Part shown: piece by piece, positions 28,701-61,295 of the stretch
Numbering within the stretch: the first letter of the stretch is position 1
Layout of the letters: each line of letters opens with the position of its first letter
Source: Endozoicomonas sp. G2_2
Lineage (GTDB): Bacteria; Pseudomonadota; Gammaproteobacteria; Nevskiales; Salinisphaeraceae
Assembly: GCF_017744135.1 (NCBI RefSeq)
Contig: NZ_JAGHQU010000016.1
Span: 1-64,000 of the forward strand
Reading direction: 5' to 3'
DNA length: 64,000 bases
Position numbers and translations under genes: made by a program
Notes under the pieces: model-generated
Told to the model about the DNA's origin: nothing
Databases searched by the model: none
The model's input: the letters and a program-made list of their open reading frames with translations, nothing else

Positions 28701-30718
28701 TCGATTTCCCCGGCGCCCAACGGCTCCGGCTGGATCGCCTGCAGGGCATCGACGTTTTCGCGGTAGTCGCCGTCTGAAAGGGCGGCTTCGCGTGCTTCGG
28801 CGAGCTTGACCACGACATTGCCCGACAGGTAGCGGCTGGCCGTCTCCCATTCATCACTACGCGGGTTGCGATAGATCGAGCCGCGCAATTCTTCGCGAAT
28901 CTCCGGCCATTCCTGATCGAGCAGGGCGCACAGGCGATCGGGCAGCACCCGCCCGTGCTCGTTCAAGCTGACAGCGAGGGCGTCATGCGGCGTCTTGGCG
29001 CGTTCGACACGCTCGGGCAGGCCGATGGTGCGCTCGGTAAAAATCTCGGTCTTCGTCGCCGTCTGCGTCTTCTCGTCGTAGTGCTCCAGCGACAGCAGCA
29101 CGGCAATAGCCGGATCGTTGCACATGGCGCGACGATTGGCGGGTTTGCTGATCGGTCCGTAGCGCTTGGTCATGGCGTCATAAGCCCGGTGCAACTTCGC
29201 CTGCGCGGCGTGCAGATCGACAAGCGGCGCCTGCTTCACCTGCGTTGCGATGACCTCGTAGGCGGCATCACGTACCGGAATCATCAGGGCGATGCGCTTT
29301 TCGGCGGTCTTGGAGACCTTCACGACTTCGAGCACGCCTTCGGCCCCAACGACGCAAAGCGCGCCGTTATCTTCGAAGGTGAAGGCGCCGACCTGAATGC
29401 TCGAAAGGCCATCACCGCCCAGCTGAACCGTTTGTTTCTCGATCTGCTGTTCGACCGCATCGGCGGCCTCGACATAGACGCCCTGCGGCAACTGGTCAGC
29501 CATAGCCTGATAGCCGTGCGAGGAGTCGGCGCGTACCAGCAGCTCCGGGCCAAAGCGACCCTGACCGATGACGCGCTCGCCGAGCACCGCTTCGGGGTGT
29601 TCGTCGAAATAGGTGTTCTGCTGGATCGATCGGCCGTTGTCGGCCCAGTCGTCCACGTTGACCCAGGCCAGCTCGCCCGGATCGTCCATACGGGCTTGAT
29701 CGCGCTTCTGCAGGAACAGAACGTCTGCGGCGACCTGTGTATTGGCGCTGTCCTTGAATGCCGAACTGGGCAGGCGAAAGGCGCCGCAGAGGTCGGCACG
29801 CTTGGCAATCTCGCGGCGCACACGGTTATCTACCTTGTCGAGCGTACCGTGGGTCGTCACGAACGCGATCAGGCCACCCGGACGTATCTTGTCCAGCGTC
29901 TTGAGAAAGTAGTAATCGTGAATGCGCAGGCTCGCGAAGCGACCCCCGGTATAGGCGCTATCCGTCACGCCGAAGTCACCGAAGGGTACGTTGCTGATTG
30001 CCAGATCGAAGCGATTGTTCGGCAGGCGCACGGATTCGTATCTGTCGGCATGCACCGTGGCGGAGGGATAGAGACGCGACGCGATTGCGGCCGCTTTGGG
30101 TTCGCACTCAACGGCGGTGAACTCGCAGGCCAGATCATTAGGGCGTCGGCCAATGAAATGCCCGATGCCTGCGGCAGGCTCAAGCACCCGGCCACCCGTG
30201 AAACCGAGCTTACGAACGCCCGACCAGATCGCATCAATCAGCGCTTCGCTGGTGTAGTAGGCGGTCAGCACGCTACCCGTGATCGCCGGCCAGTCGGCGC
30301 CATCGATATAGGTACGCAGCGTGTCGCGCGTCTGGGCGTACTTGATGCGATTTGCAGGCGTGACTTCGTCGAGCACATTCGCCAGTCCGCCCCAGCCCAC
30401 GTAGCCCAACAGAGCGTTTCGCACCGAATCCGACAGGGCATCGCCCTCGCGATCAGCCTCCGCGTCGAGCGCGGCCAGCGCATCGAGGTTCGCCTTGAGA
30501 CGATCGGCGTCCTGCCATGCCCCCTGATCGATCATGCCGTCCGGCAGGCAGACGTTGTGATCTTCGCTCGTATCGATCGATACGACGGTTGCACGGCGCT
30601 TGCTGGCCCGTGCCTGGGCCTGCTGCGCCATGACCTCGGCGTGAGCTACTTGGATTGCGGCAACAATGGCGGCGCCGTCGTCGTCGAACAGGGAAAGTTG
30701 GCTTGCGGTCTGTGTCAT
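25790..30718 (-). CDS. giant N6-adenine methyltransferase / SNF2-type helicase
   Basis: 1642 residues. The N-terminal part is a Rossmann methyltransferase with SAM motif LEPAAGIGHFIG and catalytic-type motif ISNVPFGDFG (NVPF where NPPF/Y is usual). The middle and C-terminal parts form an SF2/SNF2 motor: Walker A VVGSGKTGS, LLIDESHLFKN, and GRGLRQGN at the end of motif VI. The last 250 residues are coiled. This layout is known from large mobile-element and phage proteins such as DarB-like antirestriction enzymes, delivered with or protecting incoming DNA. Conserved element promoter copy 1 lies 31 bases upstream; the next gene is translationally coupled. Confidence 0.88.
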   Translation of the reverse strand: MTQTASQLSLFDDDGAAIVAAIQVAHAEVMAQQAQARASKRRATVVSIDTSEDHNVCLPDGMIDQGAWQDADRLKANLDALAALDAEADREGDALSDSVRNALLGYVGWGGLANVLDEVTPANRIKYAQTRDTLRTYIDGADWPAITGSVLTAYYTSEALIDAIWSGVRKLGFTGGRVLEPAAGIGHFIGRRPNDLACEFTAVECEPKAAAIASRLYPSATVHADRYESVRLPNNRFDLAISNVPFGDFGVTDSAYTGGRFASLRIHDYYFLKTLDKIRPGGLIAFVTTHGTLDKVDNRVRREIAKRADLCGAFRLPSSAFKDSANTQVAADVLFLQKRDQARMDDPGELAWVNVDDWADNGRSIQQNTYFDEHPEAVLGERVIGQGRFGPELLVRADSSHGYQAMADQLPQGVYVEAADAVEQQIEKQTVQLGGDGLSSIQVGAFTFEDNGALCVVGAEGVLEVVKVSKTAEKRIALMIPVRDAAYEVIATQVKQAPLVDLHAAQAKLHRAYDAMTKRYGPISKPANRRAMCNDPAIAVLLSLEHYDEKTQTATKTEIFTERTIGLPERVERAKTPHDALAVSLNEHGRVLPDRLCALLDQEWPEIREELRGSIYRNPRSDEWETASRYLSGNVVVKLAEAREAALSDGDYRENVDALQAIQPEPLGAGEIDVNLGAPWVPEWVYHQFAGHLLGMEAAPGNRNNRGVPAYRHVPYGAVSFTPALGLWEVDISEYHCDRSTFAQYGTPNFSPIELIKHALNQKLPVVWTYDTHGNKVKDFDASNEAQEKLASIKEAFAEWLWSEGQRTDHLCSIYNERFNNRVERIYDGSHLTFPGLSLSRTLRPHQANFAWRVVESGNTYAAHVVGSGKTGSMVAAAMESKRLGLARKPMVVVPNNLLYDFAAEALRFYPGANVLIARKEDISKHGRRQFLAKVSSRNWDLIVMTHESFGRVPLSDQYVEQFIRNEIAEYEDLINETRANNGDRISIKNLEMAKRRLEARLDKLANQEARDHAGLCFEALGVDMLLIDESHLFKNLEIRSRMGSIPGVTNAASQRALDLFMKTRWVMAQSPHEQRNIVFASGTPISNSMTELYTNLKYLAPNLCAEHDIAHFDSWAAAFGEVVAALERAPEGSGYRVHSRFSRFVNVPELVRLFRSFADVKMADDLDLPTPEADRHHHVAEPSDALIAYMKVLGERAALCRSGAVDKRDDNILKIANDGRHASLDMRLIDPAANDDPGSMLRQVAETIDHYYVRGGDNVQLVFCDLGTPKSHRFSIYTELRTLLIDAGLPAEEIAFAQDYKTDAQRQQLYAAARAGQLRVVLGSTAKMGMGMNAQDKISDIHHVDAPWRPADIDQRDGRGLRQGNEHDSVRIHTYVTRDSYAEFMWETLKRKAGFITQALTSPDKAQRRIADTVEPKYAEIMALASGDPRIREKVEIDDRVDRLKLRYRYHRNSQARIDRRLSEIAYHLDDAQRRLHGHQQDMNVLSGERVLELANGQRVQDADTAQKAVRAFGKDALRGHSTSLYLGTFGGFEWRIEHGLTSEYRKGYRLILDGAVPLYEVIGRSGERAWAVLNDLLDSLNQRGARIQARIDSLEQEHAGLITQQGRDFEDQDLLETLLERQKVLNRELMEAAEQATKAA

Positions 30719-35696: not shown

Positions 35697-36542
35697 CTAC
35701 CCCTGATGCTGGTCATGTCGATCGCGATCGAATGCCGCGGTATCGCTATCCGGGTCGAAGAATGCGAGGGATTTCACGCGGCTGATGGCGCGCCGGTAGG
35801 GGAGATTCTCACGCCAGCCTTTCCAGTATTGCTCGAACGAGAACGGCCGCACGTTGTATGCCTCGGTTGTCAGAACCCGACCAACCGCGTCCACTAGGGC
35901 GTCCCATCGCGCTTCGAAGGGATTGCCGAGATAGTCACGTACCAATTCGCGTAGACCAGGGCTCTGCCCGTGATGACGTTTCACGTACTCGTCGAGGCAC
36001 CGGGCACGTTCGATCGATCTTGAGCGGTGCGACGCGGACAGGAACGCTTCAGCGATTTTTCGGACGAGATCCGTTTGCGTCTTGTCGATGGCCGCCATGT
36101 CTTGCAGAGCCTGCCAGTCGGCATCGTGACCCGGCGCAGTTTCGTTGGCGCGCTCGAAGCTGTTGGCGAGATTGCCGAGCACATGCAATGCGACATCGAC
36201 GAGCTCGTTCTCGTCGCTGCTCAGATAGGTGCGTAGCGGATTGTCCTGCTCAAGCTCGGGAATCGCACGCTTGACCGCATCGTGTCCGCGTTTCAGCCGC
36301 GAGTTGATCAGGGCGCCGGCACGAACCTTCTTGATCGCCATGTCTTCGGTGCGAAATGCGCCGCTCATCACCTGGGACCGGGGGGTGGACCTGCGCCCGT
36401 AGCACGTCTTTTCATGGTCGCAGATGCGCCGACATACCCAGTGGTAGTTGTCCGGGTCGTACGCGTAATCGGTATTGGCGTCGATGACCATGAGGCAGCC
36501 GCACTCTGGACAGCTTGGACGTGCATCGGTCAAATCCGCCAT
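35697..36542 (-). CDS. unknown protein with N-terminal zinc finger
   Basis: 281 residues from ATG 36542. The first 45 residues contain CPECGC and, after a YAYDPDNYHWVC segment, C-x3-C-x5-C, a likely zinc ribbon. The remaining helical region has no recognised fold. It converges with the polymerase operon. No conserved element promoter precedes it; the upstream region contains AT-rich DNA. Confidence 0.6.
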   Translation of the reverse strand: MADLTDARPSCPECGCLMVIDANTDYAYDPDNYHWVCRRICDHEKTCYGRRSTPRSQVMSGAFRTEDMAIKKVRAGALINSRLKRGHDAVKRAIPELEQDNPLRTYLSSDENELVDVALHVLGNLANSFERANETAPGHDADWQALQDMAAIDKTQTDLVRKIAEAFLSASHRSRSIERARCLDEYVKRHHGQSPGLRELVRDYLGNPFEARWDALVDAVGRVLTTEAYNVRPFSFEQYWKGWRENLPYRRAISRVKSLAFFDPDSDTAAFDRDRHDQHQG

Positions 36543-36723
36543 TAAAAAACCTCGCGCTGAGTTATCGGCATGCCTGCATAATGCAGACACGGGTATCAAA
36601 AAAATCCCTAGCTAGGTCAACAACATAACGCAGCATCCGCTGCGAACGCGATGTGCATCAGCAGGGAGGAACGAAGATGCCGTATGCGACCGTCAGTTCA
36701 AGGGATGGATCGCTGCAATCTGG

Positions 36724-36777
36724 GCAAAAAATAAAATGGCGGCGTCGGGTGAAGCCCACGAAACGCCCGACGCCGCC
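36724..36777 (-). terminator. strong Rho-independent terminator
   Basis: Minus strand GGCGGCGTCGGG and CCCGACGCCGCC pair fully (12 bp) and are followed by ATTTTATTTTTTG. It ends the transcript of the 167- and 75-residue genes or of candidate RNA A. Confidence 0.88.
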
Positions 36778-36934
36778 TGTTGCCGGGGCCTGTGGCCTCT
36801 ACGACAACGGGTGGAGCGGCCGGCATCCACCAACCACCGGCAGTAGCGCTGCGAAACACAGCGCTGGGCACCATACGCGATTGGAAGAGAAGGTCGCTCA
36901 CACCCCTATAAAGGGGGTGGAGAGGAGTCTCTCC
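36724..36934 (-). ncRNA. candidate structured RNA A
   Basis: Directly after the 75-residue gene the minus strand has hairpin GGAGAG-ACTC-CTCTCC, then a CACCCC...GGGGTG stem at 36901-36919, about 120 bases of GC-rich sequence, and a very strong terminator (12-bp stem GGCGGCGTCGGG, T-rich tail). The first stem and its flank recur at 44938-44968. Whether it is an independent RNA or a long structured 3' end is open. Confidence 0.4.
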
Positions 36935-36944
36935 AAAATCGGCA

Positions 36945-37172
36945 TTAAGCGTCGGCGTTGTTCGCTTTCTTGATGCCGCGTTTGACCAGGTCTGCCTCGA
37001 CGGCGTCGCGCATCTCGGCGGTCAGTTCGTTATCGGGGATGGGTGTCGCCTCACCGAAACGGGTCAGTGACATGCTGTCGTCTTCTTCGATCTTATAGAC
37101 CAAAAGCTCGCCAGCAGCGCGCACGACGCCGAGGTCATTGGGTAATCCGGTTCGCGTTACATCCGACATCAT
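36945..37172 (-). CDS. unknown small protein
   Basis: 75 residues, acidic, with an AGGAG site before a double ATG. It has no cysteines or membrane segments. It follows the 167-residue gene by nine bases, so it is the second gene of the transcript from promoter copy 4. No family recognised. Confidence 0.6.
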   Translation of the reverse strand: MMSDVTRTGLPNDLGVVRAAGELLVYKIEEDDSMSLTRFGEATPIPDNELTAEMRDAVEADLVKRGIKKANNADA

Positions 37173-37181
37173 GGGCTCCTT

Positions 37182-37685
37182 CTAGGCCGCCTGCTCAGCG
37201 TACTGGCTCAGCGGGTTATCGAGAAAACTGGTGTTGGGCAGGACTTCGCGCACGCGACGCTGAACGTCATCAGCGTCGTCGGTTTCTGCCACCTCGTTGA
37301 GTGCGGCCACGATTTGTTCGACGGTGGTGGTCACTTGGCCATCGGCGTTGCACGGCAGGGACTCGACCTGATCCATGCCCGGTCGCCACCAGCGAATTGC
37401 GCTGTCGTATTCGTACTTCTGCTCCGCGCGTGCGTCGAAGGGCGTGCCGAGCGCGATCAGCACCGCCTCAGTGGTTTGCATCTCGCCGTAGCGCGCCTGT
37501 GCGTCGTACAGGATCACGAGATCGTCATCCGAGAGGTTGATGCCGAACTCGCCGCAATCGATGTCATCGAATGTATCGAGATCGGATGAGTCGATGCTGA
37601 ACTCGGCAGTGATGTGATCGCGCAGCTGTGCATGGGCGAGGGCGTGGCGCGGAAAGGTTATTTCGCCGTAGAAACGATCAGCCAT
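37182..37685 (-). CDS. unknown acidic protein
   Basis: 167 residues, strongly acidic, starting MADRFYGEITFPRHAL, with IDCGEFGINLSDDDLVILYDAQARYGEM in the middle. No family is recognised; the acidity and size could fit a DNA-mimic or a regulatory protein. First gene behind conserved element promoter copy 4, followed after nine bases by the 75-residue gene. Confidence 0.65.
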   Translation of the reverse strand: MADRFYGEITFPRHALAHAQLRDHITAEFSIDSSDLDTFDDIDCGEFGINLSDDDLVILYDAQARYGEMQTTEAVLIALGTPFDARAEQKYEYDSAIRWWRPGMDQVESLPCNADGQVTTTVEQIVAALNEVAETDDADDVQRRVREVLPNTSFLDNPLSQYAEQAA

Positions 37686-37724
37686 GTGAATACTCCTGCT
37701 CGGTGCCTGATTGGGTGAGATAAC

Positions 37725-37752
37725 AGCTTCGGCCCCCGCTCAGGCGCCGCAA
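37725..37752 (-). promoter_or_regulatory. conserved element promoter, copy 4
   Basis: TTGCGGCGC with GAAGCT at the 16-base spacing, 39 bases before the 167-residue gene. Its GGCGCCTGA part contains the stop codon of the upstream methyltransferase gene. Confidence 0.7.
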
Positions 37753-39005
37753 GCGCTATCCGCGGCGAACGTACCGGCGAAATCTTGCGTCATGGAGAAC
37801 CCGGCAGCGTGGCGAAGCCGTTCTGCACCGCCGCGGATGTATTCGCCGTAACGCTCGCAGGCCAGCCAGCGCCGGCCGAGGCGTTCCGCTGCCACAGGCA
37901 GTGTCTGCGACCCGGCCATGATGTCGACCGCCAGATCACCCGGCTCGCTGAGGAATTCCACGAGGAAAGTCGCGAGAGAGACGGGAAACGGCGCGCCGTG
38001 GCAGGGCAGGCCAAGCGAGACGGCCTCACGCTTATAGCGCTGCTGATCGGTGCAGCGATGCCCGAGCGACAGCACGTTGCGCGGGATGCGCCCCGGTGTG
38101 ACGTTGGCGAACGAACGGCCCGGCCGCAGCCGATAGGCGCCGTCCTGGCTACAGGTCTCGCGGACCTCGCCGCCGGCGGCCATGAGTGCGGTATGGCGAG
38201 CACTGTGAGGCTGGAGCACGCGGCGGTTGTCGGCGCGTACCTGATCGGGATCGTTGGTCAGCCAGAGCAATGTCTCGTAGCCGGCGTTGAGTTGGACCCG
38301 CTGTTTCGACGCGTACTGAACGGGTCCGGGTGCCTTCGAGGGGTTGTGCCAGATCAATGCGTCCATCTTCCACAGGCCCAGTCGGTCGATGAGCGCGAGC
38401 GTCAGGCGTTCGATATAGGGCACACGCGCCGCACAGCCATTCTCGAAGACCTCGTTGCCGAGTACGAGCACGATGCTGCCGCCGGGCGCCAGACGCGCGA
38501 CGACACCTTCGAGAACGCCGCACAGCCAATCGACATACTGCTCAGCGGCGATTCGGCCATAGGCGCGGCCCTTCGCGATCGGGTAGGGCGGCGAGGTCAC
38601 GCATAGGGTCACGGGTTCGTCGATACGGGCGATGACGTCGCGGCAGTCACCCCATACCGCCACGCCGAGATCGGTCGAGAAGGCGACCAGGTGCATCCCT
38701 CGAACCGGGCGGCGCAGCTTGTGCTTGCCCTCGGCCGTGATCCGCCAGCGTCCGCGGTCAACCCGCTCGATCAGCCCCTGGGTCTTGAGCGTCTGCTGGG
38801 ACCAGCGCGCCGCGCGGGCATTGGCGTTGTAATCGCGACCCTCGCTAGCGCCGGTGAACAGTTCCATCTGAAGCCCCAGATCCTCGGCGACGGCTTCATA
38901 TAGCTCAGCGTTGGTCAGCGCCCCGCCGTGCTCGGCGTACGTGCGTGTGACGGCCGTATCGATCGCCGAGCGTTCGATGTCATGTGCCGATATTGATCCG
39001 GTCAT
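37740..39005 (-). CDS. beta-class DNA methyltransferase with N-terminal winged helix
   Basis: 421 residues. Residues 1-95 form a winged-helix-like, Mrr-N-type domain (QTLKTQGLIERVDRGRWRITAEGK). Then comes the catalytic motif VTSPPYPIAKGRAYG and, late, the SAM motif DLAVDIMAGSQTLPVAAERLGRRWLACE, the motif order of beta-class N4-cytosine/N6-adenine enzymes. GSQT replaces the usual GSGT. No matching endonuclease is adjacent, so it is an orphan or protective enzyme. It lies 88 bases after the 347-residue gene and may share its transcript. Confidence 0.85.
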   Translation of the reverse strand: MTGSISAHDIERSAIDTAVTRTYAEHGGALTNAELYEAVAEDLGLQMELFTGASEGRDYNANARAARWSQQTLKTQGLIERVDRGRWRITAEGKHKLRRPVRGMHLVAFSTDLGVAVWGDCRDVIARIDEPVTLCVTSPPYPIAKGRAYGRIAAEQYVDWLCGVLEGVVARLAPGGSIVLVLGNEVFENGCAARVPYIERLTLALIDRLGLWKMDALIWHNPSKAPGPVQYASKQRVQLNAGYETLLWLTNDPDQVRADNRRVLQPHSARHTALMAAGGEVRETCSQDGAYRLRPGRSFANVTPGRIPRNVLSLGHRCTDQQRYKREAVSLGLPCHGAPFPVSLATFLVEFLSEPGDLAVDIMAGSQTLPVAAERLGRRWLACERYGEYIRGGAERLRHAAGFSMTQDFAGTFAADSACGA

Positions 39006-39093
39006 GGTGAACCTCGGTTGATCTTGCAGCCGGCCGTGCCAGCGCGGCCACTATCACCTGGGTATGGCTTGGGTGTCTTGACGGGTAAGCGCA

Positions 39094-40137
39094 TCAGCCT
39101 GGAAGCTCGACCCGCATCGATCGGCCCTGCTGGCGGATGCCGTGCGTCACGCGGGCCTTGTCCGCTGCATCCGCGAAGTCGACCTCGTAGACCTCCGTGG
39201 CTGCGTCCTCAGCCATGAAGGCCACCCGGACACGCTCGCGACCGTCATCAATCACCGGCCATACCCGCACCGCGACATCGCGTTTCTTCCAGCCCCTCAC
39301 CAGGAACGGCCAATCGACACGGGCATGGTCGATCGGGTACCAGCCCAGATGATCCCGAGCACACAAGCGGGCCGTCATGCCGAGGCGCCGGATAGCAGCC
39401 AGATCGAGCGGCGTCGCACGGTCAGTCGATCGCACGTAATGCACCGCGAGTGCCGCCGATGCCTCGCAGCTGATCGACCCAGCGGCACAATCAAATGCGA
39501 ACGCCATACGCTCGCACAGCGAGGTCATGGCGTAATCCGCATGCGCCTTCGACACGGCCGACTCGACATCGGCAGTCATTGGCGGCGCGATCTCGAAGGC
39601 TGCATCGCTGTCGCATCGCTCGACGGCACTGGGCTTGGCTACCTTGCCCTTCGACGCATGGGTGATCTCGCTTGTCTGGCTCAGGCCCAGACGATCGACG
39701 GTTTCGTTCACCGCACGTTCGATTTCAGCCATGGCATGGGCGGACAGCTTGGCCGTCGAGATGCAGGCGACGGTCAGCGACCGGCGGACCCAACACGTAT
39801 CGTCCTCGCTCAGGCAATGTGCCGCGCGCGCTGCGTCGAGCATGTCCTGGGTGATGTCTTCACGGTGGGCGACTTCAAAGAAGTTGCACAGCGACGCCGT
39901 GACCCGCACGAGGAACGGGCCATCGTGGTCCACGTAGTCGCAGCCCAGCTGATCGCTCTCGATCGAGTCGTCGGTCAGGTAGTGCAGCTGCTCCAGCGGC
40001 AGGCGTAGCACGCTCGGCGTCGCATCGAACACGTGGGTATCGATGGTCTCGGCGTAGTCATGCTTGGGGCCGACCCATCGCTGGGCGACGAACTCAATCG
40101 TAATGTGGCGGCTGGCGTAGTCGTGGTGCGTCGTCAT
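39094..40137 (-). CDS. unknown protein
   Basis: 347 residues, soluble, with a FEVAHREDITQDML region and a C-terminal half containing several Cys residues (LCERMAFAFDCAAGSISCEASAAL). No family recognised. Conserved element promoter copy 5 lies 33 bases upstream. Possibly co-transcribed with the methyltransferase that follows. Confidence 0.65.
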   Translation of the reverse strand: MTTHHDYASRHITIEFVAQRWVGPKHDYAETIDTHVFDATPSVLRLPLEQLHYLTDDSIESDQLGCDYVDHDGPFLVRVTASLCNFFEVAHREDITQDMLDAARAAHCLSEDDTCWVRRSLTVACISTAKLSAHAMAEIERAVNETVDRLGLSQTSEITHASKGKVAKPSAVERCDSDAAFEIAPPMTADVESAVSKAHADYAMTSLCERMAFAFDCAAGSISCEASAALAVHYVRSTDRATPLDLAAIRRLGMTARLCARDHLGWYPIDHARVDWPFLVRGWKKRDVAVRVWPVIDDGRERVRVAFMAEDAATEVYEVDFADAADKARVTHGIRQQGRSMRVELPG

Positions 40138-40170
40138 GGTGTCGTTTCCGTGTGGTCGGTGAGCACGGAC

Positions 40171-40198
40171 AGGTTCGGGCGCCGCGCGCGCGCCGCAA
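40171..40198 (-). promoter_or_regulatory. conserved element promoter, copy 5
   Basis: TTGCGGCGCGCGC with GAACCT at the 16-base spacing, 33 bases before the 347-residue gene. Confidence 0.75.
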
Positions 40199-40207
40199 GC
40201 CGCGCGA

Positions 40208-40705
40208 TCAGGCAGGCGATGGTCGGGGCAGCCGCAGATCGACCCGGAAGTTGGATGTCAGCGTCGCGAGGTCGTGGTCGAAAAGCGCGCGCCAGTTCAT
40301 AGGATCATTGGACCTGAGAAGCGCGCTAAGACTTCTGGGCCTGCCTTCCTGCTGTCGATTGATCGAGAGCGTGGTGGGGCGCATTACCCACATGAGGTCG
40401 CCCGCACTGAAGTCCCCGACCACATGCCAGAGCAGCTTGAGACGATTATTCGCGTACAAGCGCTCGATCGCCGCATGAACTCGACGCGCGTGGGCGATAT
40501 CGGCCTCGAAGCTGACAAAGGGGCATGCGATCAGGTGTTCGCCCTTGCTATGGCCTTGGCAGCTTGAAAACGGCGCGACGCCCTCGAAGCTGTCGAGTAG
40601 TTCGACCAGAGGCAGCACCTTGGGATCGATCGTTTCGGTGCCGATGACATCGCCGGGTTGGCCTGTGCCGCGCGATTCCTCGGCGTGTAGCAGGAAGGGT
40701 TTCAT
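40208..40705 (-). CDS. unknown protein
   Basis: 165 residues from ATG 40705, with a conserved-looking PFSSCQGHSKGEHLIACPFVSFEAD segment containing two Cys and a His. No family recognised. Its promoter region lacks the conserved element; it ends immediately upstream of copy 5. Confidence 0.55.
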   Translation of the reverse strand: MKPFLLHAEESRGTGQPGDVIGTETIDPKVLPLVELLDSFEGVAPFSSCQGHSKGEHLIACPFVSFEADIAHARRVHAAIERLYANNRLKLLWHVVGDFSAGDLMWVMRPTTLSINRQQEGRPRSLSALLRSNDPMNWRALFDHDLATLTSNFRVDLRLPRPSPA

Positions 40706-40849
40706 ACTCGATAAAGCCCCGCCGTGTGTAGCACCTCAATGGACTTCCGTAACTGTCAGTGCCTTGAGCTACAGCGGCTGTGCGGCCCTACGCGGCACGC
40801 AATGCTTGGCCAGAGCCTCCTTTCATGCGGGGAAGCCCATATCGAGTTC

Positions 40850-41551
40850 ATGAGGATGGCGGGACAACAGAAGTCACAGTGGAGCCACGGTCAGCTGTGC
40901 GAGATCGCGGCGCGCTGGCTCAAGCGACCCCACAGCAAGGGCGGGCCAGGCTGCAAGCTGGCTCTCATCGAGCCACGCAGCGGATATGACGGCGAAGCAC
41001 CGGATGCGATCGGGTGGCGAAGTGCCGGCTTCCTGGACGGCACCTATCTGGTCGAGGCAAAGACCTCGCGCGCCGACTTCCTCGCCGACGCACGCAAGAC
41101 CCATCGATTGGCCTCCTCCGAGCAATCCGCGCTGGGGAACTGGCGGTTTTACCTGTGCCCGGAAGGTCTCATCGATCCGGGGGAACTACCGCCCCAATGG
41201 GGTCTGCTCTGGGCAACCAGGCGCGGCGGGATTCAATCGGTCGTCAATCCATTGGATATTCGAAACACCCTCGAAATGCGTGAGGCAGTTGCGTCGCACC
41301 GTCTCGAATCCAACCGCGAGCGAGAGCTGTTCATCTTGGTCGGGATGCTGTCTCGTATTGAAACGCCCGAACGTCTCAACGACTTGCTGCGGGTAGCGAA
41401 CCGAACGAATGCGAGCCTGCAGCGGGAACTCGATCGAGAGCGAAAAGCCAACCGCCGCTTACGCGAACGACTGGTGGAGCGGCTGCAGGAGCAGCCTGAA
41501 TGGGCCACGAGCCCGATAGCACGGCGTGTGTCTCGTCACGGCGGAGGGTAG
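40850..41551 (+). CDS. PD-(D/E)XK nuclease-like protein (MmcB/Vsr-like)
   Basis: 233 residues from ATG 40850 (earlier in-frame starts exist). The core EAPDAIGWRSAGFLDGTYLVEAKTSRADFLAD matches the restriction-like nuclease pattern D...(E)xK, with Asp in EAPDAIG and Glu-Ala-Lys in VEAK. It is followed by YLCPEGLIDPGELPPQWGLLWATRRGG, typical of phage and mobile-element proteins of this group. The C-terminus is a charged coiled coil. It is one of few plus-strand genes in the element. Target unknown; it could be partner to an orphan methyltransferase nearby. Confidence 0.65.
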   Translation: MRMAGQQKSQWSHGQLCEIAARWLKRPHSKGGPGCKLALIEPRSGYDGEAPDAIGWRSAGFLDGTYLVEAKTSRADFLADARKTHRLASSEQSALGNWRFYLCPEGLIDPGELPPQWGLLWATRRGGIQSVVNPLDIRNTLEMREAVASHRLESNRERELFILVGMLSRIETPERLNDLLRVANRTNASLQRELDRERKANRRLRERLVERLQEQPEWATSPIARRVSRHGGG

Positions 41552-41660
41552 TGTGCGTCACGTGCGCGGTGCGACATTGTAAGTGCGCCGGATTGAACGT
41601 CTATTGTTGATATTTTCGTCCTGTTGTTATGTAAGGCGATACGAACAGAAGCCGCGTGGT

Positions 41661-43055
41661 TCAGCCGTTGTCCGGTCGTGACGCGGCCGCATTGGTCATG
41701 AGCTGCATCATCAACGCACGCCGCTGCGCTTCAGGCACTGGGGTGCCGTTGATCACGATCTCGTCTGCTGCTGCACTGATGCGCGATACAACGCGGTCGC
41801 CTTCGATCCTGGCAAACCCCTGATCCACCATCTGTTGGACCTTGGCCAGCGCGAGGTCGGCGTTCGGCGCTATGCCGGACCACGCCCGAATCAGGCTGAT
41901 ATCGAACGCAAGATCGAGATCGATGTGAAGCCGTTGTATCAGGCTCACCATGGGCGGGGTCTTTGAAATGGCCACAGGCGCCTCGGCCTGATCCAGGCTC
42001 ATTGTCACGCTCGCATTCATGCCGCCGCTGCGGGCATCGAACTCAGGGATAGCCAGCGTCATGGAAGGGGTGCCGGCCACGAAGGCTTTCAGGGTATTGC
42101 CAAAGGCCTCGGCGATCGCCTGCGAGCGCAGCTGCTCGCTCATGGCGGATTGCTCGGCTTGGGTGATCCGTTTCGACAGACCTCTCAGCGCGTCGATACT
42201 GATGCCGTCGAGGCGATACTCGATCGTGCCCTCATTCAAAGCGAGATTGGCCGGGGGTGGCCCGGGCAGCTGCATCGTGACGTCGGAGAAGTTGAACGCG
42301 GTGCGTGAGCCGAACGTCACGTCGTCGTCGTTGATATGCACATCGTTGTTGATGCGCGCGGAGAAGCCGATCCGGGTGTCCTGGCTGGAGTCGGCGATGT
42401 CGACGCGATCAAGGGTAATGATCGCGGTCTGATCCCACACGCCGGGGTTGGGTTTATCCGGATCGAAGGCGACGCCTTCTGCTTTGATAGATCCACCCTT
42501 GAAGGCGGCGTTCACGGGCCCGTCAATGATCGTCAGGCCGGGAATCGTGAATTGCATATCCACCACGTCGCCATCGGATTCGAGCGTACCCTCCAGCCCG
42601 TCCCAGCGAACGTCGGCCGCGCCATCGACCACGCCGCGCGTTTGCGGCGAGAAGAAGGTCATTTTCATGTGGCCGAAGAGCGGGACGGTCGCGGTGTAGC
42701 TGAGCGGCGGTCCGTCAAAGAAGTCCGTCAACGTCTGCATCGAGCCATTCGTTGACGTGACGCTCTCGAGGTAGCCCTCCATCGAAGCCCAGTTGAGCGC
42801 CGGCAACGGGCCATGATGAATATCGTAGACCGAGCGCATTGTCACGGCCCCGTTCCGAGCGGTGACGCGGGCCTGTGAACTGAACCAGCCCCGTTGGTAC
42901 TCGGATACTTCCATCGACATGCCCGCGGTTTCGCCCCATGCCACCGCGTGCTCTTTGAACACATCCTCGATATGCATGCCGACGAAATAGGGCGTCACCA
43001 ATCCGCCGACGACCAAGACACCCGCGACTGCGGGCAATACAACTTTCTTGTCCAC
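41661..43055 (-). CDS. YdgA-family (DUF945) protein
   Basis: 464 residues with an N-terminal signal or anchor helix (VVLPAVAGVLVVGGLVTPYFVG) and the DUF945 pattern EYQRGWFSSQARVTARNG, then a long beta-rich periplasmic part with repeated hydrophobic strands. Members face the periplasm; function unknown. It is a chromosomal-type family, odd within this element. No conserved element promoter is present. Confidence 0.8.
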   Translation of the reverse strand: MDKKVVLPAVAGVLVVGGLVTPYFVGMHIEDVFKEHAVAWGETAGMSMEVSEYQRGWFSSQARVTARNGAVTMRSVYDIHHGPLPALNWASMEGYLESVTSTNGSMQTLTDFFDGPPLSYTATVPLFGHMKMTFFSPQTRGVVDGAADVRWDGLEGTLESDGDVVDMQFTIPGLTIIDGPVNAAFKGGSIKAEGVAFDPDKPNPGVWDQTAIITLDRVDIADSSQDTRIGFSARINNDVHINDDDVTFGSRTAFNFSDVTMQLPGPPPANLALNEGTIEYRLDGISIDALRGLSKRITQAEQSAMSEQLRSQAIAEAFGNTLKAFVAGTPSMTLAIPEFDARSGGMNASVTMSLDQAEAPVAISKTPPMVSLIQRLHIDLDLAFDISLIRAWSGIAPNADLALAKVQQMVDQGFARIEGDRVVSRISAAADEIVINGTPVPEAQRRALMMQLMTNAAASRPDNG

Positions 43056-43204
43056 TCCGATCCCCCTTATTTCGTCGTGATTGAGCCGAGCCTAAACGAC
43101 CGGAAGACGGTATGCCGAGACTTGGCCGATACCCATGAAAGGGCTGTCGACCAAGCGATGCGGTCGCAAGGCCCAGACAGCTTGTGGTTCAGTGCGTGGC
43201 TTGC

Positions 43205-43795
43205 TTAGAGACGACCCGTGGCGAGCGTGCTTTCGAGTGTCCAGTCGTAGAGGTCAGCCACCTCCCACGCGATCGCCAGTTCACGACGCGCGGCCTCCGG
43301 GTCACTTTCGTAGAGCGTGTTGAGGCATACCGGGTCATGCCCGTCCTTCTGCTCCTTCGCCACAATGACTTCGTGCGCCGGCCCCTTCGCGTTGCGAACC
43401 GCTGAGTGGGGCTTGACCTTGTAAACCATGATTTCCTGCGTGTCTCGAAACTTGATCGCCATCTTGGCGTCCGGCCCGCATAGGTTTTTCGCGCGCCGCT
43501 TGACGTCGCTACGCACAAGATCGACCGCGACCATGTGGCCGATCAGCAGATCGAGATCCAGCGGCACTGACATATCTTTGCCGAGTTCGACCTGCTTCTG
43601 GCGCGCGAGGAATTCTGTCGCCTTGGCCAGCAAGTGTTGCTTGCCCTCGATCGGGCGCAGAGCGACCGGCTCGCCATGCCCTCGGTTCGAAGCCGTTGCC
43701 GCGCGCTTGCCGTCGATATAAACGCTGCCGGTGAACGCGTTGGTCTCTTCCGACAGGCTCGTATGGTGTTTCACGCCTTTGAGTTCGATTTTCAT
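43205..43795 (-). CDS. unknown protein
   Basis: 196 residues from ATG 43795; a longer frame upstream of it is not coding. It begins MKIELKGVKHHTSLSEETNAFTGSVYIDGK, apparently beta-rich, then helical (LAKATEFLARQKQVELG) with a MVYKVKP segment. No family recognised. Conserved element promoter copy 6 lies 39 bases upstream. Confidence 0.65.
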   Translation of the reverse strand: MKIELKGVKHHTSLSEETNAFTGSVYIDGKRAATASNRGHGEPVALRPIEGKQHLLAKATEFLARQKQVELGKDMSVPLDLDLLIGHMVAVDLVRSDVKRRAKNLCGPDAKMAIKFRDTQEIMVYKVKPHSAVRNAKGPAHEVIVAKEQKDGHDPVCLNTLYESDPEAARRELAIAWEVADLYDWTLESTLATGRL

Positions 43796-43834
43796 GCGGT
43801 CTGCCCTGTGTGTGAGTGCGGTTGCTACGGGGCT

Positions 43835-43862
43835 AGACTCAGACGCGCAACGCGCGCCGCAA
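43835..43862 (-). promoter_or_regulatory. conserved element promoter, copy 6
   Basis: TTGCGGCGCGC with GAGTCT at the 16-base spacing, 39 bases before the 196-residue gene. Confidence 0.78.
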
Positions 43863-43880
43863 CCCTTTTCCGAGCCGCTG

Positions 43881-44684
43881 TCAGAACAGACTCCGCTGGG
43901 CCGGCTTGTGGTTGATGATCGAGGCCAGCGATTGACCGCTGGCGTGCATCGTGTACCCGGTCTCGTCCTCCAGCTGCATGTACTCGGTGGCGAGGTCGGG
44001 ATGCACGCGTGCTGCGTGGCGTAGGTCGTTATACGAGCCCATGATGCAAAACTGGCACGACAATCGTTCATTACCGCCCGCGTAGGCGGGGTGGGGCGAC
44101 TGCCCGGCCGCGCGAATGGTGTCGAACACGCGTGATTTCGACCAGCCGTGAATCGGCAGGTGGTCGTACCAGGTGCGCCGTCCGTTGGTCTGCGACGCAT
44201 TGACCGACCAAATCGGGCGCTTTCGTCGGGCCGGCGACTCATCGGCACGAAAGCCCAAGCAGTTCACAACGGTCGTGAAGCCGTGTTTCGTGGCGTATCG
44301 GCGGACTTCTCGCGCGATCGGCCCGCGCTTGAGATCGCTCGTGCATTGGCGCTGCGCCGGAGATGGCCAGGAGGGCACGTCGGGCCGGCGAGCGTGGCGC
44401 CGGCGCACCATGTCGAACAGCGTCTTGTTGGCGCGCGCCACGATGAAGGGCAGTGCCGCGGACTGGGCCTGGCCTTGCGCCAGCGCTTGCGCGCCAGGCC
44501 ACTCGATCGCGCCCAGGCTCGCGTGTACGACGAGCAGTTGCTCGGCGGGTATGTCGGCCTGGAGTAGGGAGATCAGCATCGATTGCGAGTCAGCGCCGCC
44601 ACTATGACTGGCCACCACGAGTGCGCCCGACGAGACGAGATCCGCGAGCGACTCGGGTATTGCGTGAGCCGGAGTTGAAGCCAT
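43881..44684 (-). CDS. PAPS-reductase-like (N-type ATP pyrophosphatase) protein
   Basis: 267 residues with the PP-loop SHSGGADSQSMLISLL near residue 28, ARANKTLFDMVRRR, and a C-terminal LSCQFCIMGSYNDLRHAARVHPDLA with a CxxC that may hold an iron-sulfur cluster or zinc. This group occurs in phages and mobile elements and includes DndC-like DNA-modifying relatives; true assimilatory PAPS reductase is unlikely. It could activate a nucleotide or DNA substrate. Driven by promoter copy 7. Confidence 0.75.
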   Translation of the reverse strand: MASTPAHAIPESLADLVSSGALVVASHSGGADSQSMLISLLQADIPAEQLLVVHASLGAIEWPGAQALAQGQAQSAALPFIVARANKTLFDMVRRRHARRPDVPSWPSPAQRQCTSDLKRGPIAREVRRYATKHGFTTVVNCLGFRADESPARRKRPIWSVNASQTNGRRTWYDHLPIHGWSKSRVFDTIRAAGQSPHPAYAGGNERLSCQFCIMGSYNDLRHAARVHPDLATEYMQLEDETGYTMHASGQSLASIINHKPAQRSLF

Positions 44685-44714
44685 GACCTTGCAGCGTTGA
44701 TGGGAACGCTATGC

Positions 44715-44742
44715 AGTCTCCGCCGGCGCGAGCGCGCCGCAA
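44715..44742 (-). promoter_or_regulatory. conserved element promoter, copy 7
   Basis: TTGCGGCGCGC with GAGACT at the 16-base spacing, 30 bases before the PAPS-reductase-like gene. Confidence 0.75.
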
Positions 44743-44784
44743 CACGGCATCTTCGATGACGGTCGATCGACTGCTGGTTTCAGG

Positions 44785-44822
44785 GTAGAAAGCCCGCCGG
44801 GCTAGGGGGGTAGCCCGGCGGG
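44785..44822 (-). terminator. strong Rho-independent terminator
   Basis: CCCGCCGGGCTA and TAGCCCGGCGGG pair over 12 bp around a six-base loop and are followed on the minus strand by CTTTCT. Confidence 0.82.
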
Positions 44823-44968
44823 AATAGAACGGAACGGTGCGCTGGGGGGCGCGTTCCGAGAAGCACGAGAGCTTTGAGATCGATGTTCACAGGCATGGGG
44901 GACCGCGTTGTGACCATCTGGCCGACGCCCGTTGAGCGTCGCTTACCCCCTTAAAGGGGGTAGGAGTG
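44785..44968 (-). ncRNA. candidate structured RNA B
   Basis: After the 1023-residue gene the minus strand has a 19-base inverted repeat TACCCCC...GGGGGTA (44944-44962) followed by AGCGAC, the same flank as in candidate RNA A, then about 120 bases and a strong terminator at 44793-44822. No ORF is convincing. It may be a second member of the same RNA family or a structured 3' end. Confidence 0.4.
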
Positions 44969-44976
44969 GAGCACCC

Positions 44977-47900
44977 TCAGCTATTCGTCCGAAAAGGGTT
45001 GTTCAACCACTCTGAGAATCCCTCGCGTAAGTCGAGATCGTCGGTTGAGAACTGCGCTAGCGCCGCAATCTGGTCAGGGGACAAGGCGCACCACAGCAGC
45101 TCATCCCGCTTTGCTTGATTGAGGTCGAAGGCGAGTGCGCCCCTGGCTCCCACCGTGCTCGTGCTCGCAAGAACGCGCAGCGTCGGGGGAACATCACGAA
45201 GCCTCGTGTACGCGAGGTCGCCGAGAGGTTCGCTCGTCAGTCTCTGGGCGATGTGATCGCCATGCTGATAGGTGTTATGCACGAGCTGCGTGATGCGATC
45301 GCGACAGCGCGTATCGCCGACCCGATAGAGCAGGGTCAGGGCGTCGGCCTGCCAACAGAGCCACCGGATGATCCGCCCGCCGTCTGCACTAAGACGTGGC
45401 GTAGCGATCAGGCCGATAGGCGCTCGAATGATGGGCGTGTTGACCATCCTGTCGCGCCGTCCGAGCGAGGCGCGTAGCGTGGTCGCGGCACGCTCGAACA
45501 AGATCGCGATATGTGCCTGATCGGGTGCTTCGCCGATCAGCATGGCCAGATCACCGGTCTGCGCCTCGACGGTGCGGCGTTGCTGGGCGAATAGATCCGG
45601 CTTGAGCCTCGGAGCCGAACGGGCACGCTCAAGCCATAGATTCACCGCGCCGCGTTCCGTGAAGTCTTCTCGTCGTGGTGGGCTTGCCGTCGATGCAACG
45701 CGCTGTGCGGGAGCCTCGTGACGTTCCCAGACGATCAGTTCGCGTGGGTTACCACGCTCGAACACCCCCCGTTCGATCTCGGGCCCGGTCGCGGGCTCGG
45801 CGATGAGCCCATCCGCGGCCAATTTCGTCGTCATGCGTTCGACCCACGGCGTCGGCCACGGCCATGCCGCGAGCGTGTCGTCGTCGGGTGCGTGGTAGAT
45901 CACCAGCCGCGCGTGATTGTCGATGGCCACGCGTATGACCGCCTCCGGGGCGAGCGCGCATGCCTGAAGCCATGTCGCGACTTGAGCGGGTGGCGGGGCC
46001 TGGTTCACGGTGACAAGGCGGCTGCAGTCCCTGGCCATCCCGCAGGCTTCGAGTGCCTGGGCAATACGTGAGGCCGCGGTAACGATGGCACGCCCCGATC
46101 CGCGCGCCGCCGTGCTCCATCGCCGGCCCCGCGCGGCGAGCAAGACGGCACGAGTGGCGTGCTCGCGTGCAGTGTCACAGACGCTGCCAGCCACCGCGTC
46201 AATCAGTGGTTGGGCGTCCGCTTCGGCTTGGCGCAGGTGATGGTAGGCCCGGATCAATACCGGCATGACCACCTCGTACCGCTCGCGAGCCTCTCGTGAG
46301 TACAGCCGCGGTTCGATGTCCGCCGCGGTCAGACCATCGAGCACGAGCAGGTGATAGCCCAGGCTCATGCGGCCGCGGTCACGATCGAGCTGAAGCATGG
46401 CAGTGGTATTGCGGGTACCGCATGTGGCGTGACTGAAACCCTCGACGCGCAGGCGCACAGCGGCATGCCCTTTATGCTGACACACGGTAGCGATCGAGCA
46501 GCGCTCGGTCGCGTGTCGAATCTGGTCTGGCTGACGGTGGACGGGATTGGTAAAGCAGTGCGGTGCGGTATCGACATCGATCAGGGCAGGCCAGTATCCC
46601 GACACTGTCGCCTCGGGCGCGAGACGGGCGAACTGATCGGCGAACAATCGACCCAGGGGCACGGCGTCCCGACCCAGCAGTCGCGTGTCGTCGTCATCGG
46701 CAATGAAATCGAAGATCGCGGCCTGGACATCCGTATCGAGCAGATTCAATCGGCCGTGCAGTGCTTCGAGGTCGAAGTGCCCGAACAGCGCGTCACGGTC
46801 GTAGAGACCCCACAGCAATATGAGCAGGCGCTTATACATCAGCGCGATCGAGTCCTGACGATCACGGCTATCGGCATAGTTCACGTCGTCGAGCGTGATT
46901 CGCTCGCCGTCGATGCCCTGGAACGGACGATCCATGTCATCGCTCGTCGGGAACAGGCGCGGCAGATAGTCGAGCGGGGAGAACACCGCATCGACACGAT
47001 CACCGTCGCGTACCAGCAGGAACACCGCCGCGTTGTAGCCGTTGTAGACCATGTTCGCGAGGGTGTCGTTGTAGTCGCGCCGGTGGCGCCGGTAGCGCAT
47101 CGCAGCGATACAGCGTGTTTCGGGCAACAGGCGATCCCGAAGCTCGGTATCGTCGCGCAACAGGGCCGCGAAGGCGCCGAGGTCACGGAAGTCTGCACCG
47201 CCGAACTCGACGTTGATCAGCGATTCCTCGTCCATGAACAGGCAGCGCTGGCGTATCGCGTAGGCACCGTGATCGGGGCTGCGATCGCCCTCGACCAGTG
47301 TTTCAACAGCCACGTCCTTGCCGGTATAGAGCTCGAGTGTCGATAAGGCGTCGAACACCTTCTTGGCGTCGGCGACCATTGCCTTGGCTTGGGCCGACAT
47401 CGCGGCCGCGCGCTCCAGATGAAACGGCGAGATGGCTTTGGCCAACCGCTGCAGCTCGTGACTTTCTCGGGTGATCAGCTCCGCACGCGCACTGACCAGC
47501 GCGACCTGATTGCCGGCCGCGGCCTGAAGCTGTGCGAGTTGGTCCGGGCTGACAGCCTCCAGCGAGTTTGACGTCGCCCCCGGTGCCGGCAGGCCGGCGA
47601 CCGGTTGGTATCCGGCAGCCAGCTCCGAATCCGGGTTGTCTCGTCGTTCGGCCTCGATCGCGGCAATCACCGCGGTCGAGTCGCTCGATAGGGTTTCGAT
47701 GCGGGTCTTTGAGGCGAGGATCTGACCCTCGATCTCGGCGATCTCGGCATCGCGGATGGCTTGCGCCTGTTCGGCATCGATCGGCTCGAAGCCATCCAGG
47801 AACTCACGCAGCAACAGGCGACGGCTGTGGTGTGAACTCTCGCTGGGATGATGGCGCAGAACGACCGTGTGAGGGACATCGTCAACGATCTTGATCTCGT

Positions 47901-48048
47901 CGATCATGAGCATACGACCCGCCGGAATCGTCACGCGGTCCCGGGCCCGATGGTCGCGCGTCGCCCGCCAGTACGCCCCAGGCGCCAGGTTGTATTCACG
48001 CTCGATACGGGCGACACGAGCGGCTGACGGCATCAGATCCTGTGGCAT
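44977..48048 (-). CDS. large unknown protein
   Basis: 1023 residues, soluble. Residues 110-150 form a coiled coil (AEIAEIEGQILASKTRIETL). The rest is mixed, with LDYLPRLFPTSDDMDRPFQG and DDVNYADSRDRQDSIALMYKRLLILLWGLYDRDALFGHF, and a C-terminal half rich in Arg and Asp. No Walker, nuclease or methyltransferase motifs are apparent. Length and setting suggest a core element protein. It lacks the conserved promoter element; its start lies 75 bases upstream of the 127-residue gene's stop. Confidence 0.7.
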   Translation of the reverse strand: MPQDLMPSAARVARIEREYNLAPGAYWRATRDHRARDRVTIPAGRMLMIDEIKIVDDVPHTVVLRHHPSESSHHSRRLLLREFLDGFEPIDAEQAQAIRDAEIAEIEGQILASKTRIETLSSDSTAVIAAIEAERRDNPDSELAAGYQPVAGLPAPGATSNSLEAVSPDQLAQLQAAAGNQVALVSARAELITRESHELQRLAKAISPFHLERAAAMSAQAKAMVADAKKVFDALSTLELYTGKDVAVETLVEGDRSPDHGAYAIRQRCLFMDEESLINVEFGGADFRDLGAFAALLRDDTELRDRLLPETRCIAAMRYRRHRRDYNDTLANMVYNGYNAAVFLLVRDGDRVDAVFSPLDYLPRLFPTSDDMDRPFQGIDGERITLDDVNYADSRDRQDSIALMYKRLLILLWGLYDRDALFGHFDLEALHGRLNLLDTDVQAAIFDFIADDDDTRLLGRDAVPLGRLFADQFARLAPEATVSGYWPALIDVDTAPHCFTNPVHRQPDQIRHATERCSIATVCQHKGHAAVRLRVEGFSHATCGTRNTTAMLQLDRDRGRMSLGYHLLVLDGLTAADIEPRLYSREARERYEVVMPVLIRAYHHLRQAEADAQPLIDAVAGSVCDTAREHATRAVLLAARGRRWSTAARGSGRAIVTAASRIAQALEACGMARDCSRLVTVNQAPPPAQVATWLQACALAPEAVIRVAIDNHARLVIYHAPDDDTLAAWPWPTPWVERMTTKLAADGLIAEPATGPEIERGVFERGNPRELIVWERHEAPAQRVASTASPPRREDFTERGAVNLWLERARSAPRLKPDLFAQQRRTVEAQTGDLAMLIGEAPDQAHIAILFERAATTLRASLGRRDRMVNTPIIRAPIGLIATPRLSADGGRIIRWLCWQADALTLLYRVGDTRCRDRITQLVHNTYQHGDHIAQRLTSEPLGDLAYTRLRDVPPTLRVLASTSTVGARGALAFDLNQAKRDELLWCALSPDQIAALAQFSTDDLDLREGFSEWLNNPFRTNS

Positions 48049-50836: not shown

Positions 50837-50864
50837 ATCATCGACCGTCAGCTGCGCGCCGCAA
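50837..50864 (-). promoter_or_regulatory. conserved element promoter, copy 10 (weak)
   Basis: TTGCGGCGCGC overlaps the last codons of the 117-residue gene; the hexamer at the 16-base spacing is GATGAT, off consensus. Position before ssb supports function; coding overlap weakens it. Confidence 0.4.
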
Positions 50865-51201
50865 GTGCGGCGTCCATGCGATCGGCATGGCCGAGGCCCA
50901 GGGCGTAGCCGGTGGCGGTATTCAGGTCGAAGTAGTGGCGAACCTTCCAGAGCTCGTCCAGGGCGTTGCGTATCGCTGCGACATCGACCGTCGATCGATC
51001 GGACGCGCGCAGTCTGTCGTGGGCGAACTGGCCTGCAAGCATCGCGCCGGTAAAGTGAACGTCGCTGCCCTCGATCATCTCCCGGTGACCACCGCAACGG
51101 ATGAGCTTCATTGCGTGTTTGGCGCTCGATTGCCCGCCGAGGCGTGCGCTGCGTAGCAAGCTGCCCAGCTTCGGGTCGTGGATAGCGTCGCGGTTTCCCA
51201 T
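50848..51201 (-). CDS. unknown protein
   Basis: 117 residues, helical, with GGQSSAKHAMKLIRCGGHREMIEGSDVHFTGAMLAGQFAHDRL. No family recognised. Its last residues are encoded by the DNA of the promoter-like copy 10. No element promoter precedes it. Confidence 0.55.
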   Translation of the reverse strand: MGNRDAIHDPKLGSLLRSARLGGQSSAKHAMKLIRCGGHREMIEGSDVHFTGAMLAGQFAHDRLRASDRSTVDVAAIRNALDELWKVRHYFDLNTATGYALGLGHADRMDAALAARS

Positions 51202-51387
51202 ACCCCATGAAAGGGTCGCTTGGGTGAGCGATCTCGGCTGGTGAGCGTAATTAGCGCTTTTCGCACAGGCGAATACGGCGCTAGGTGGTATGCGTGGCGG
51301 GGTTCGCGGGTAATGCCCAGGTGCTCAGCACCCTCTGGGTCGTCGCCGGCATCGCTTGTTTCTCCCGTGTTGGCACGGTTGCCGAGA

Positions 51388-52808: not shown

Positions 52809-52833
52809 ATCGGTGTCTTCGAGGTGTGGTTCT

Positions 52834-52861
52834 AGCCTCGTCTGATGGATGCGCGCCGCAA
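52834..52861 (-). promoter_or_regulatory. conserved element promoter, copy 11
   Basis: TTGCGGCGCGC with GAGGCT at the 16-base spacing, 25 bases before the 157-residue gene, the shortest leader in the set. Confidence 0.78.
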
Positions 52862-52880
52862 CCCCTTATGACTTAGCGAG

Positions 52881-53821: not shown

Positions 53822-54098
53822 CTGAAGCTCCAGGCCGAATTGAAAGAAGGGCCAGGCCACCACAACCCGGCCCCTCCGAGGGTCTAGCGCACCCATGACG
53901 TGGGATGCGGTTGCCGTGGCCGATTCACCCCGGCGGCAACACAGGGGACTCAATGAGTACCGACCGACTCACTCCTGCGCATCTTCAACCCGCGGAGTCA
54001 CGGGCGGAGACCTTGGCGATACGCTGCCACTGCACTTTATCTCTACAGCTATAAAGCAATACAGGAGAAGCGTTTCCCTGTTTGGTCCGAATATCGGG

Positions 54099-54308: not shown

Positions 54309-54341
54309 GGTCTGGTCCTGCTCCGTTGTTTCGATGGAGTC

Positions 54342-54369: not shown

Positions 54370-54384
54370 GCCCTTTTCACGTGT

Positions 54385-55852: not shown

Positions 55853-55880
55853 GTGGTATTTCGAACTTTTTTCGATCGCC

Positions 55881-61216: not shown

Positions 61217-61295
61217 GTGTCGTCTCGTGCGTGTCTCGTCCCATAAAGGGCCTGGCAGACAACCAGCGGCCGCGCCGGGGTCCATGAGCACGATC

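What the first reader, a model, noticed from the sequence alone, without database searches (positions are those of the whole stretch)
36724..44968. Two related stem-loop plus terminator regions suggest a paired non-coding RNA family
At 36893-36925 and 44938-44968 the same sequence occurs: GTCGCT(C/T)AC then a CCCC(T)...AAAGGGGG stem. Each lies just past a stop codon, and each is followed at about 110-150 bases by a perfect 12-bp GC-rich terminator with a T-rich tail. The coding genes around them are unrelated, so the shared structure is not explained by gene duplication.
Basis: seen in the sequence. Interest (0 to 1): 0.6.

Follow-up and report, generated by a model that had tools for sequence, protein, structure and literature searches.

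The report
Plasmid-specific promoter boxes, possible sRNA genes
The two matching "stem-loops" are copies of a DNA box that recurs at least 20 times, mostly just before genes, on one mobile element; it is most likely a promoter, and at these two places it seems to drive short non-coding RNAs rather than mark a shared RNA structure.

Summary
The shared sequence is real, but it is not the signature of a two-member RNA family. Read on the minus strand, both sites carry a box, roughly T(C/T)GCTnCAC-N8-11-CCC(CC)TTTnAnGGG(G)T. A sequence model built from 17 other copies, without either site, recovers both: 44937-44976 at 22.7 bits (E 2e-4 over the whole genome) and 36896-36921 at 11.7 bits (E 0.011 in 42 kb, weaker). 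Of 28 genome-wide matches, 24 lie on four contigs (6.8% of the genome; one is the window's) that carry plasmid partition and conjugation genes. Nineteen of the 24 boxes have a coding-like ORF 6-81 nt downstream, five at 6-8 nt, as leaderless promoters would give. At the finding's two sites no coding ORF follows; instead come about 120 nt and a perfect 12-bp GC stem, so two short non-coding RNAs (about 176 and 162 nt) are likely but unproven. Their bodies are unrelated. The element also carries about 39 copies of a second promoter-like box (TTGCGG-17-ARnCTG) and a divergent sigma-70-family factor. All transcription claims are inferred; there were no RNA data, and no close relatives of the element were found.

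The parts
44937..44976 (-). F2 box at site 2 (GGGTGCTCCACTCCTACCCCCTTTAAGGGGGTAAGCGAC); predicted -10-like element CTTTAA
   Evidence: held out of the model, recovered at 22.7 bits, E 2e-4 genome-wide
36896..36921 (-). F2 box at site 1 (CTCCACCCCCTTTATAGGGGTGTGAG); weaker member
   Evidence: held out, 11.7 bits, E 0.011 in 42 kb, 0.97 genome-wide; direct similarity to site 2
36726..36901 (-). predicted RNA 1 (about 176 nt), from the inferred start after the box to the U tract
   Evidence: box + no coding ORF + terminator; fold z -4.3 with terminator, -1.85 without it; start and existence inferred
44783..44944 (-). predicted RNA 2 (about 162 nt)
   Evidence: as above; fold z -4.0 with terminator, -1.5 without it; existence inferred
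36726..36777 (-). intrinsic-terminator-like 12-bp stem with U tract ATTTTATTTTTT
   Evidence: sequence
44783..44822 (-). 12-bp GC stem with weak T tail CTTTCTACCC
   Evidence: sequence
40701..40736 (-). F2 box 6 nt before the ATG of 40208-40705
43120..43162 (-). F2 box upstream of the DUF945 gene 41661-43055
51194..51234 (-). F2 box 7 nt before the ATG of 50848-51201
61231..61265 (-). F2 box, probable, 27 nt before an ATG of a coding-like ORF
   Evidence: not in training set; 13.1 bits
36945..37172 (-). 75-aa ORF whose stop precedes site 1
   Evidence: no Pfam match
44977..48048 (-). 1023-aa protein whose stop precedes site 2; distant relatives (about 25% identity) on large conjugative plasmids

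Best explanation
The two 'stem-loops' are members of an element-specific, promoter-type DNA box (F2): TnGCTnCAC, about 9 bp, then CTTTA/CTTTnAT, with transcription starting about 6-8 nt after CTTTA. Shown: the box exists in 20+ copies, is confined almost entirely to four contigs with plasmid genes, and sits 6-81 nt before coding-like ORFs at 19 of 24 sites. Inferred: that it is a core promoter, often giving leaderless or short-leader mRNAs. At the finding's two sites it lies in the gap after an upstream operon and before a terminator with no ORF between, so it most likely drives two short non-coding RNAs of about 176 and 162 nt that end at the 12-bp terminators. These RNAs share their promoter and a few 5' nucleotides, not their bodies, so they are co-regulated rather than homologous. 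Which polymerase holoenzyme reads the box is unknown; the element encodes a divergent sigma-70-family protein (C14 10537-11628), a candidate for F2 or, more likely, for the second box family F1.
For: Held-out recovery of both sites by a model of 17 other boxes. Of 11 genome-wide hits outside the training set, 7 fall on the four element contigs (6.8% of the genome). The copies on C12 and C14 were found by a whole-genome search with a model from C2/C7 copies. ORF starts follow the boxes more often than random intergenic points: 5 of 24 at 5-9 nt against 3.3%, 14 of 24 at 5-42 nt against 18.6%. The box at C12 30478 precedes a run of conjugation genes and closely resembles site 2. No coding signal follows the box at the two sites. 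The bodies are unrelated.
Against: No transcript data. No canonical sigma-70 promoter was found by scan at either site, and no conserved -35 hexamer lies 17 bp upstream. Site 1 is a weak member (E 0.97 genome-wide). The second terminator has a poor T tract. The box alignment includes columns around the ATG, so the ORF-distance test is slightly circular. Three further boxes (C2 1461, 46309, 88260) also lack a clear ORF, with no terminator found. No relatives of the element were found, so conservation could not be tested.
Confidence: 0.55

Rival explanations
1. F2 is an operator: the binding site of an element-encoded DNA-binding protein that overlaps promoters, rather than the core promoter itself. 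The CCC..GGG dyad and GTGnnnCAC-type arms are protein-binding half-sites.
For: Dyad symmetry in many copies; the upstream conserved block lies outside normal -35/-10 spacing.
Against: The dyad is absent in several good members with GGGGCTTTA; CTTT is the most constant part and sits at a start-site distance from ATGs.
Confidence: 0.2
2. The two sites start attenuated leaders: transcription begins at the box, and the 12-bp terminator in the leader decides whether the next gene (43881-44684, or 35697-36599) is transcribed.
For: Box, structured leader, terminator, then a same-strand gene at both sites.
Against: The gene after site 2 has its own F1 box after the terminator (44734); no alternative antiterminator fold was seen in the MFE folds.
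Confidence: 0.1
3. The boxes at the two sites are leftovers of genes that have decayed, with no functional RNA.
For: Site 1 keeps GTG at the place where other boxes have the start codon; folds without the terminator are only mildly stable (z -1.85 and -1.5).
Against: Both sites keep perfect 12-bp stems; site 2 is one of the strongest boxes of all.
Confidence: 0.1
4. One reading: the shared stem-loop is a structured part of a paired non-coding RNA family.
For: Shared stem and AGCGAC at two sites, terminators downstream.
Against: The same sequence occurs before many protein genes, often within a few nt of the ATG; bodies unrelated.
Confidence: 0.05

Closest known systems
Plasmid-encoded sigma factor regulon, SigN of Bacillus subtilis pBS32 (PMC6751061)
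   Same: A mobile replicon carries its own sigma factor, and replicon-specific promoter sequences are spread over it while none were found in the chromosome.
   Different: Unrelated host and sequences; here two box families (about 39 and about 24 copies); no transcription evidence; which box, if any, the sigma factor reads is unknown.
AcaCD master-activator regulon of IncC conjugative plasmids (PMC8409611)
   Same: One motif recurs upstream of several transfer-related genes; the 1023-aa protein beside site 2 has distant relatives on large conjugative plasmids.
   Different: The AcaCD half-site quoted there (CCSCAAWW) does not resemble F2 or F1; no FlhCD-type activator was looked for here.
Leaderless-mRNA promoters (TAnnnT about 7 nt before the ATG; own knowledge)
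   Same: A T/A-containing element 6-8 nt before the ATG at five sites.
   Different: The hexamer is CTTTAn/TTTnAT in a GC-rich context, with an additional conserved block TnGCTnCAC about 9 bp upstream.
Plasmid-encoded sRNAs, e.g. those of pNDM-HK (PMC5880898, abstract only)
   Same: Short non-coding transcripts encoded on a plasmid.
   Different: Here only predicted; no expression test.

Membership tests
Structured non-coding RNA family (two members) | homologous transcript bodies with conserved structure | tested here: not met
   body-body local alignment no better than shuffles, 57% reach the score; MFE folds differ
Structured non-coding RNA family (two members) | match to a described RNA family | tested here: not met
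   no Rfam match in the window
Small RNA gene (each site separately) | promoter, no ORF, terminator | tested here: inconclusive
   promoter-like box, negative codon scores, 12-bp stems, but weak T tract at site 2 and promoter activity not shown
Small RNA gene (each site separately) | discrete transcript | not testable with these tools
   needs RNA-seq or northern blot
Canonical sigma-70 promoter | TTGACA and TATAAT-like hexamers 16-18 bp apart | tested here: not met
   none found at either site
Element-specific promoter regulon with its own sigma factor (SigN-like arrangement) | sigma factor encoded on the element | tested here: met
   C14 10537-11628 has sigma-70 regions 2 and 4 above Pfam cut-offs and aligns with SigA/RpoD over about 235 aa; that C14 belongs to the element is inferred from shared boxes and ParA
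Element-specific promoter regulon with its own sigma factor (SigN-like arrangement) | promoter motif concentrated on the element | tested here: met
   24 of 28 F2 hits on four contigs, 17 of them training copies; 39 in-register F1 copies counted on the same four contigs, rest of genome not scanned with the final F1 pattern
Element-specific promoter regulon with its own sigma factor (SigN-like arrangement) | transcription from the motif by that sigma factor | not testable with these tools
   needs in vitro transcription or a sigma deletion
AcaCD-activated promoters | AcaCD motif | tested here: not met
   by eye against the half-site CCSCAAWW quoted in PMC8409611; matrix not run

The most novel reading that the evidence does not exclude
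A large mobile element runs its own transcription programme: its sigma-70-family factor reads one of two element-specific promoter classes (F1: TTGCGG-17-ARnCTG, about 39 copies; F2: TnGCTnCAC-N9-CTTTA, about 24 copies), many genes have their own promoter, some mRNAs are leaderless, and at least two F2 promoters make small RNAs that belong to the same regulon.
Probability: 0.35. Interest if true: 0.65.

Novelty: new variant of a known kind. Interest (0 to 1): 0.45.

Why it matters
If right, the element separates its gene expression from the host with dedicated promoters and possibly a dedicated sigma factor, a scheme known from some phages and from pBS32 but not found described for a conjugative element of this kind in the library searched here. 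It would also give a simple way to list the element's genes and small RNAs from sequence alone. For the narrower finding, it corrects a shared 'RNA structure' to a shared promoter-type box.

Tried and rejected
Rfam and tRNA search: nothing. Exact pattern scans of viral and genome collections for the pair: nothing. The 1023-aa protein in 100 related genomes and in genome contigs: only its own genome; the 167-aa protein likewise. Flanking DNA and proteins in plasmids and phages: no DNA match; only distant relatives of the 1023-aa protein. The pattern for F1 in 194 relatives was mis-specified (zero hits in its own genome) and says nothing; a later pattern was also too strict. F2/F1 patterns in viral contigs gave single scattered hits, not followed up and taken as chance. 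REP-type repeat: rejected because copies sit before start codons. Conserved RNA hairpin over the CTTTA region: rejected because the dyad is missing in members such as 40701 and C2 92944. AcaCD-like box: no resemblance. Shared 5' 'seed' AGCGAC as a functional sRNA seed: not claimed, because C12 30478 has a similar AACCGAG after its box and then a protein gene. Sigma-32-like reading (CCCC before the -10 element): rejected, since several good members have GGGG there. Extra boxes from the first hand-made PWM (12-14 bits) were at the level of the reversed-sequence control and were not used as evidence. An early statement in the notebook that no sigma factor lies on C2/C7 is true, but the sixth hit of that same search, on C14, turned out to be the element's own.

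Full report
What is there. The window is the first 64 kb of a 77.4-kb contig (C7) of a 3.73-Mb draft genome. From about 23 kb on, most genes run on the minus strand. The two sites of the finding read, on that strand, CTCCTCTCCACCCCCTTTATAGGGGTGTGAGCGAC and CTCCACTCCTACCCCCTTTAAGGGGGTAAGCGAC. They lie between a stop codon (36945, 44977) and a perfect 12-bp GC stem about 120 nt further on. By shuffling, a pair this similar arises about once in 20,000 for two given downstream regions, which across the element is suggestive but not overwhelming.

From a pair to a family. Scanning contig C2 of the same genome for CCCCCTTTA turned up intergenic look-alikes with a further shared block upstream. A profile then found copies without the C run, e.g. 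GTGCTACACACCGGGGGGCTTTA. Weak extra hits of that first profile were at the level of a reversed-sequence control and were discarded. A simple pattern, CGCT-N(8-14)-CCCTTT-N(1-4)-GGG, hits six distinct places in the whole genome, five of them on C2 or C7. Eleven copies aligned with almost fixed spacing: TnGCTnCACA..C....CTTTA.

Whole-genome test. A sequence-only model of those 11 (neither site of the finding included) was run on the whole genome. It placed site 2 seventh, above several of its own training sequences, and found new copies on contigs C12 and C14. These contigs proved to hold conjugation and partition genes (VirB4/TraC-like, TraD-like and ParM-like on C12, ParA on C14; C2 holds a PRTRC ParB) and the other box family F1. 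A second model of 17 boxes, again without the two sites, gives site 2 22.7 bits (E 2.2e-4 genome-wide, third best of all) and site 1 11.7 bits (E 0.011 within 42 kb, 0.97 genome-wide). Site 2 is therefore a firm member; site 1 is a probable member, supported also by its direct similarity to site 2. 24 of 28 hits are on C2, C7, C12 and C14, which make up 6.8% of the genome; 17 of the 24 are training copies, and of the 11 other hits 7 are on these contigs. I infer that the four contigs are parts of one mobile element, probably a conjugative plasmid; the assembly does not prove it.

What the box does. At 19 of the 24 boxes an ORF with positive codon score starts 6-81 nt downstream; the distances cluster at 6-8 nt (five cases) and 27-41 nt. 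For random intergenic points on the gene strand, 3.3% have such a start at 5-9 nt and 18.6% at 5-42 nt, against 5/24 and 14/24 here (slightly favourable to the boxes because the alignment columns run past the start codons). If transcription starts 6-8 nt after CTTTA, the mRNAs are leaderless or have short leaders. This is what a promoter would look like; an operator overlapping a promoter is the main rival. No canonical sigma-70 promoter is present at the two sites.

What the two sites make. Neither site is followed by a coding ORF (codon scores negative). Both are followed by a terminator-like stem. With the inferred start sites, the products are about 176 nt (36901 to 36726) and 162 nt (44944 to 44783), with stable folds (z -4.3 and -4.0), though most of that excess comes from the terminator stems. 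The two bodies are unrelated. So the most likely reading is two small RNAs (or short untranslated transcripts) under a shared promoter class, not a pair of homologous RNAs. Small-RNA status remains a prediction.

A second box and a sigma factor. The element also carries about 39 copies of F1: TTGCGGCGC, then A at +24, T at +28, G at +29, i.e. TTGCGG-17 bp-ARnCTG, typically 53-68 nt before the ATG. The 17-bp spacing between two hexamers is that of sigma-70-type promoters, with changed sequences. C14 encodes a sigma-70-family protein (about 363 aa) with regions 2 and 4, itself preceded by an F1 box (C14 10486). In the region 4.2 helix, the residues known from RpoD to contact the -35 TTG (E585, R588, Q589) appear kept and R584 replaced (my reading of the, 85 sequences with literature knowledge), which would fit a TTGCGG -35 element. 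This is inference. It makes F1, rather than F2, the likelier target of that sigma factor.

Limits. No RNA data; no close relatives of the element in 100 related genomes, the genome collection, plasmids, phages or viral contigs, so conservation of the RNA bodies could not be tested. One relatives search used a faulty pattern and carries no information.

Noticed in passing
window 30769, 32868, 37744, 40190, 43854, 44734, 48563, 50856, 52853, 54361, 55844, 57747, 60020, 60589 (minus strand); also C2, C12, C14: F1 box: TTGCGGCGC-N14-A-N3-TG, i.e. TTGCGG-17-ARnCTG, about 39 in-register copies on four contigs, mostly 53-68 nt before an ATG; promoter-like with non-canonical hexamers.
   Followed up: partly
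contig C14 (L090) 10537-11628 +: Divergent sigma-70-family factor on a contig that shares both box families; preceded by an F1 box; listed plasmid relatives only about 25-32% identical.
   Followed up: partly
window 25790-30718 -: 1642-aa DarB-like antirestriction protein (phrog_10089).
   Followed up: no
window 58449-59471 -: IS481-type transposase within the element.
   Followed up: no
C2 (L015) 52487-58839: Run of prepilin-like genes with N-terminal GFT(L/M)IE motifs, two of them each with its own F2 box (55884, 56458).
   Followed up: no
C2 88248 / 88260: An F1 box and an F2 box abut on opposite strands, forming a divergent arrangement beside the PRTRC ParB gene.
   Followed up: no
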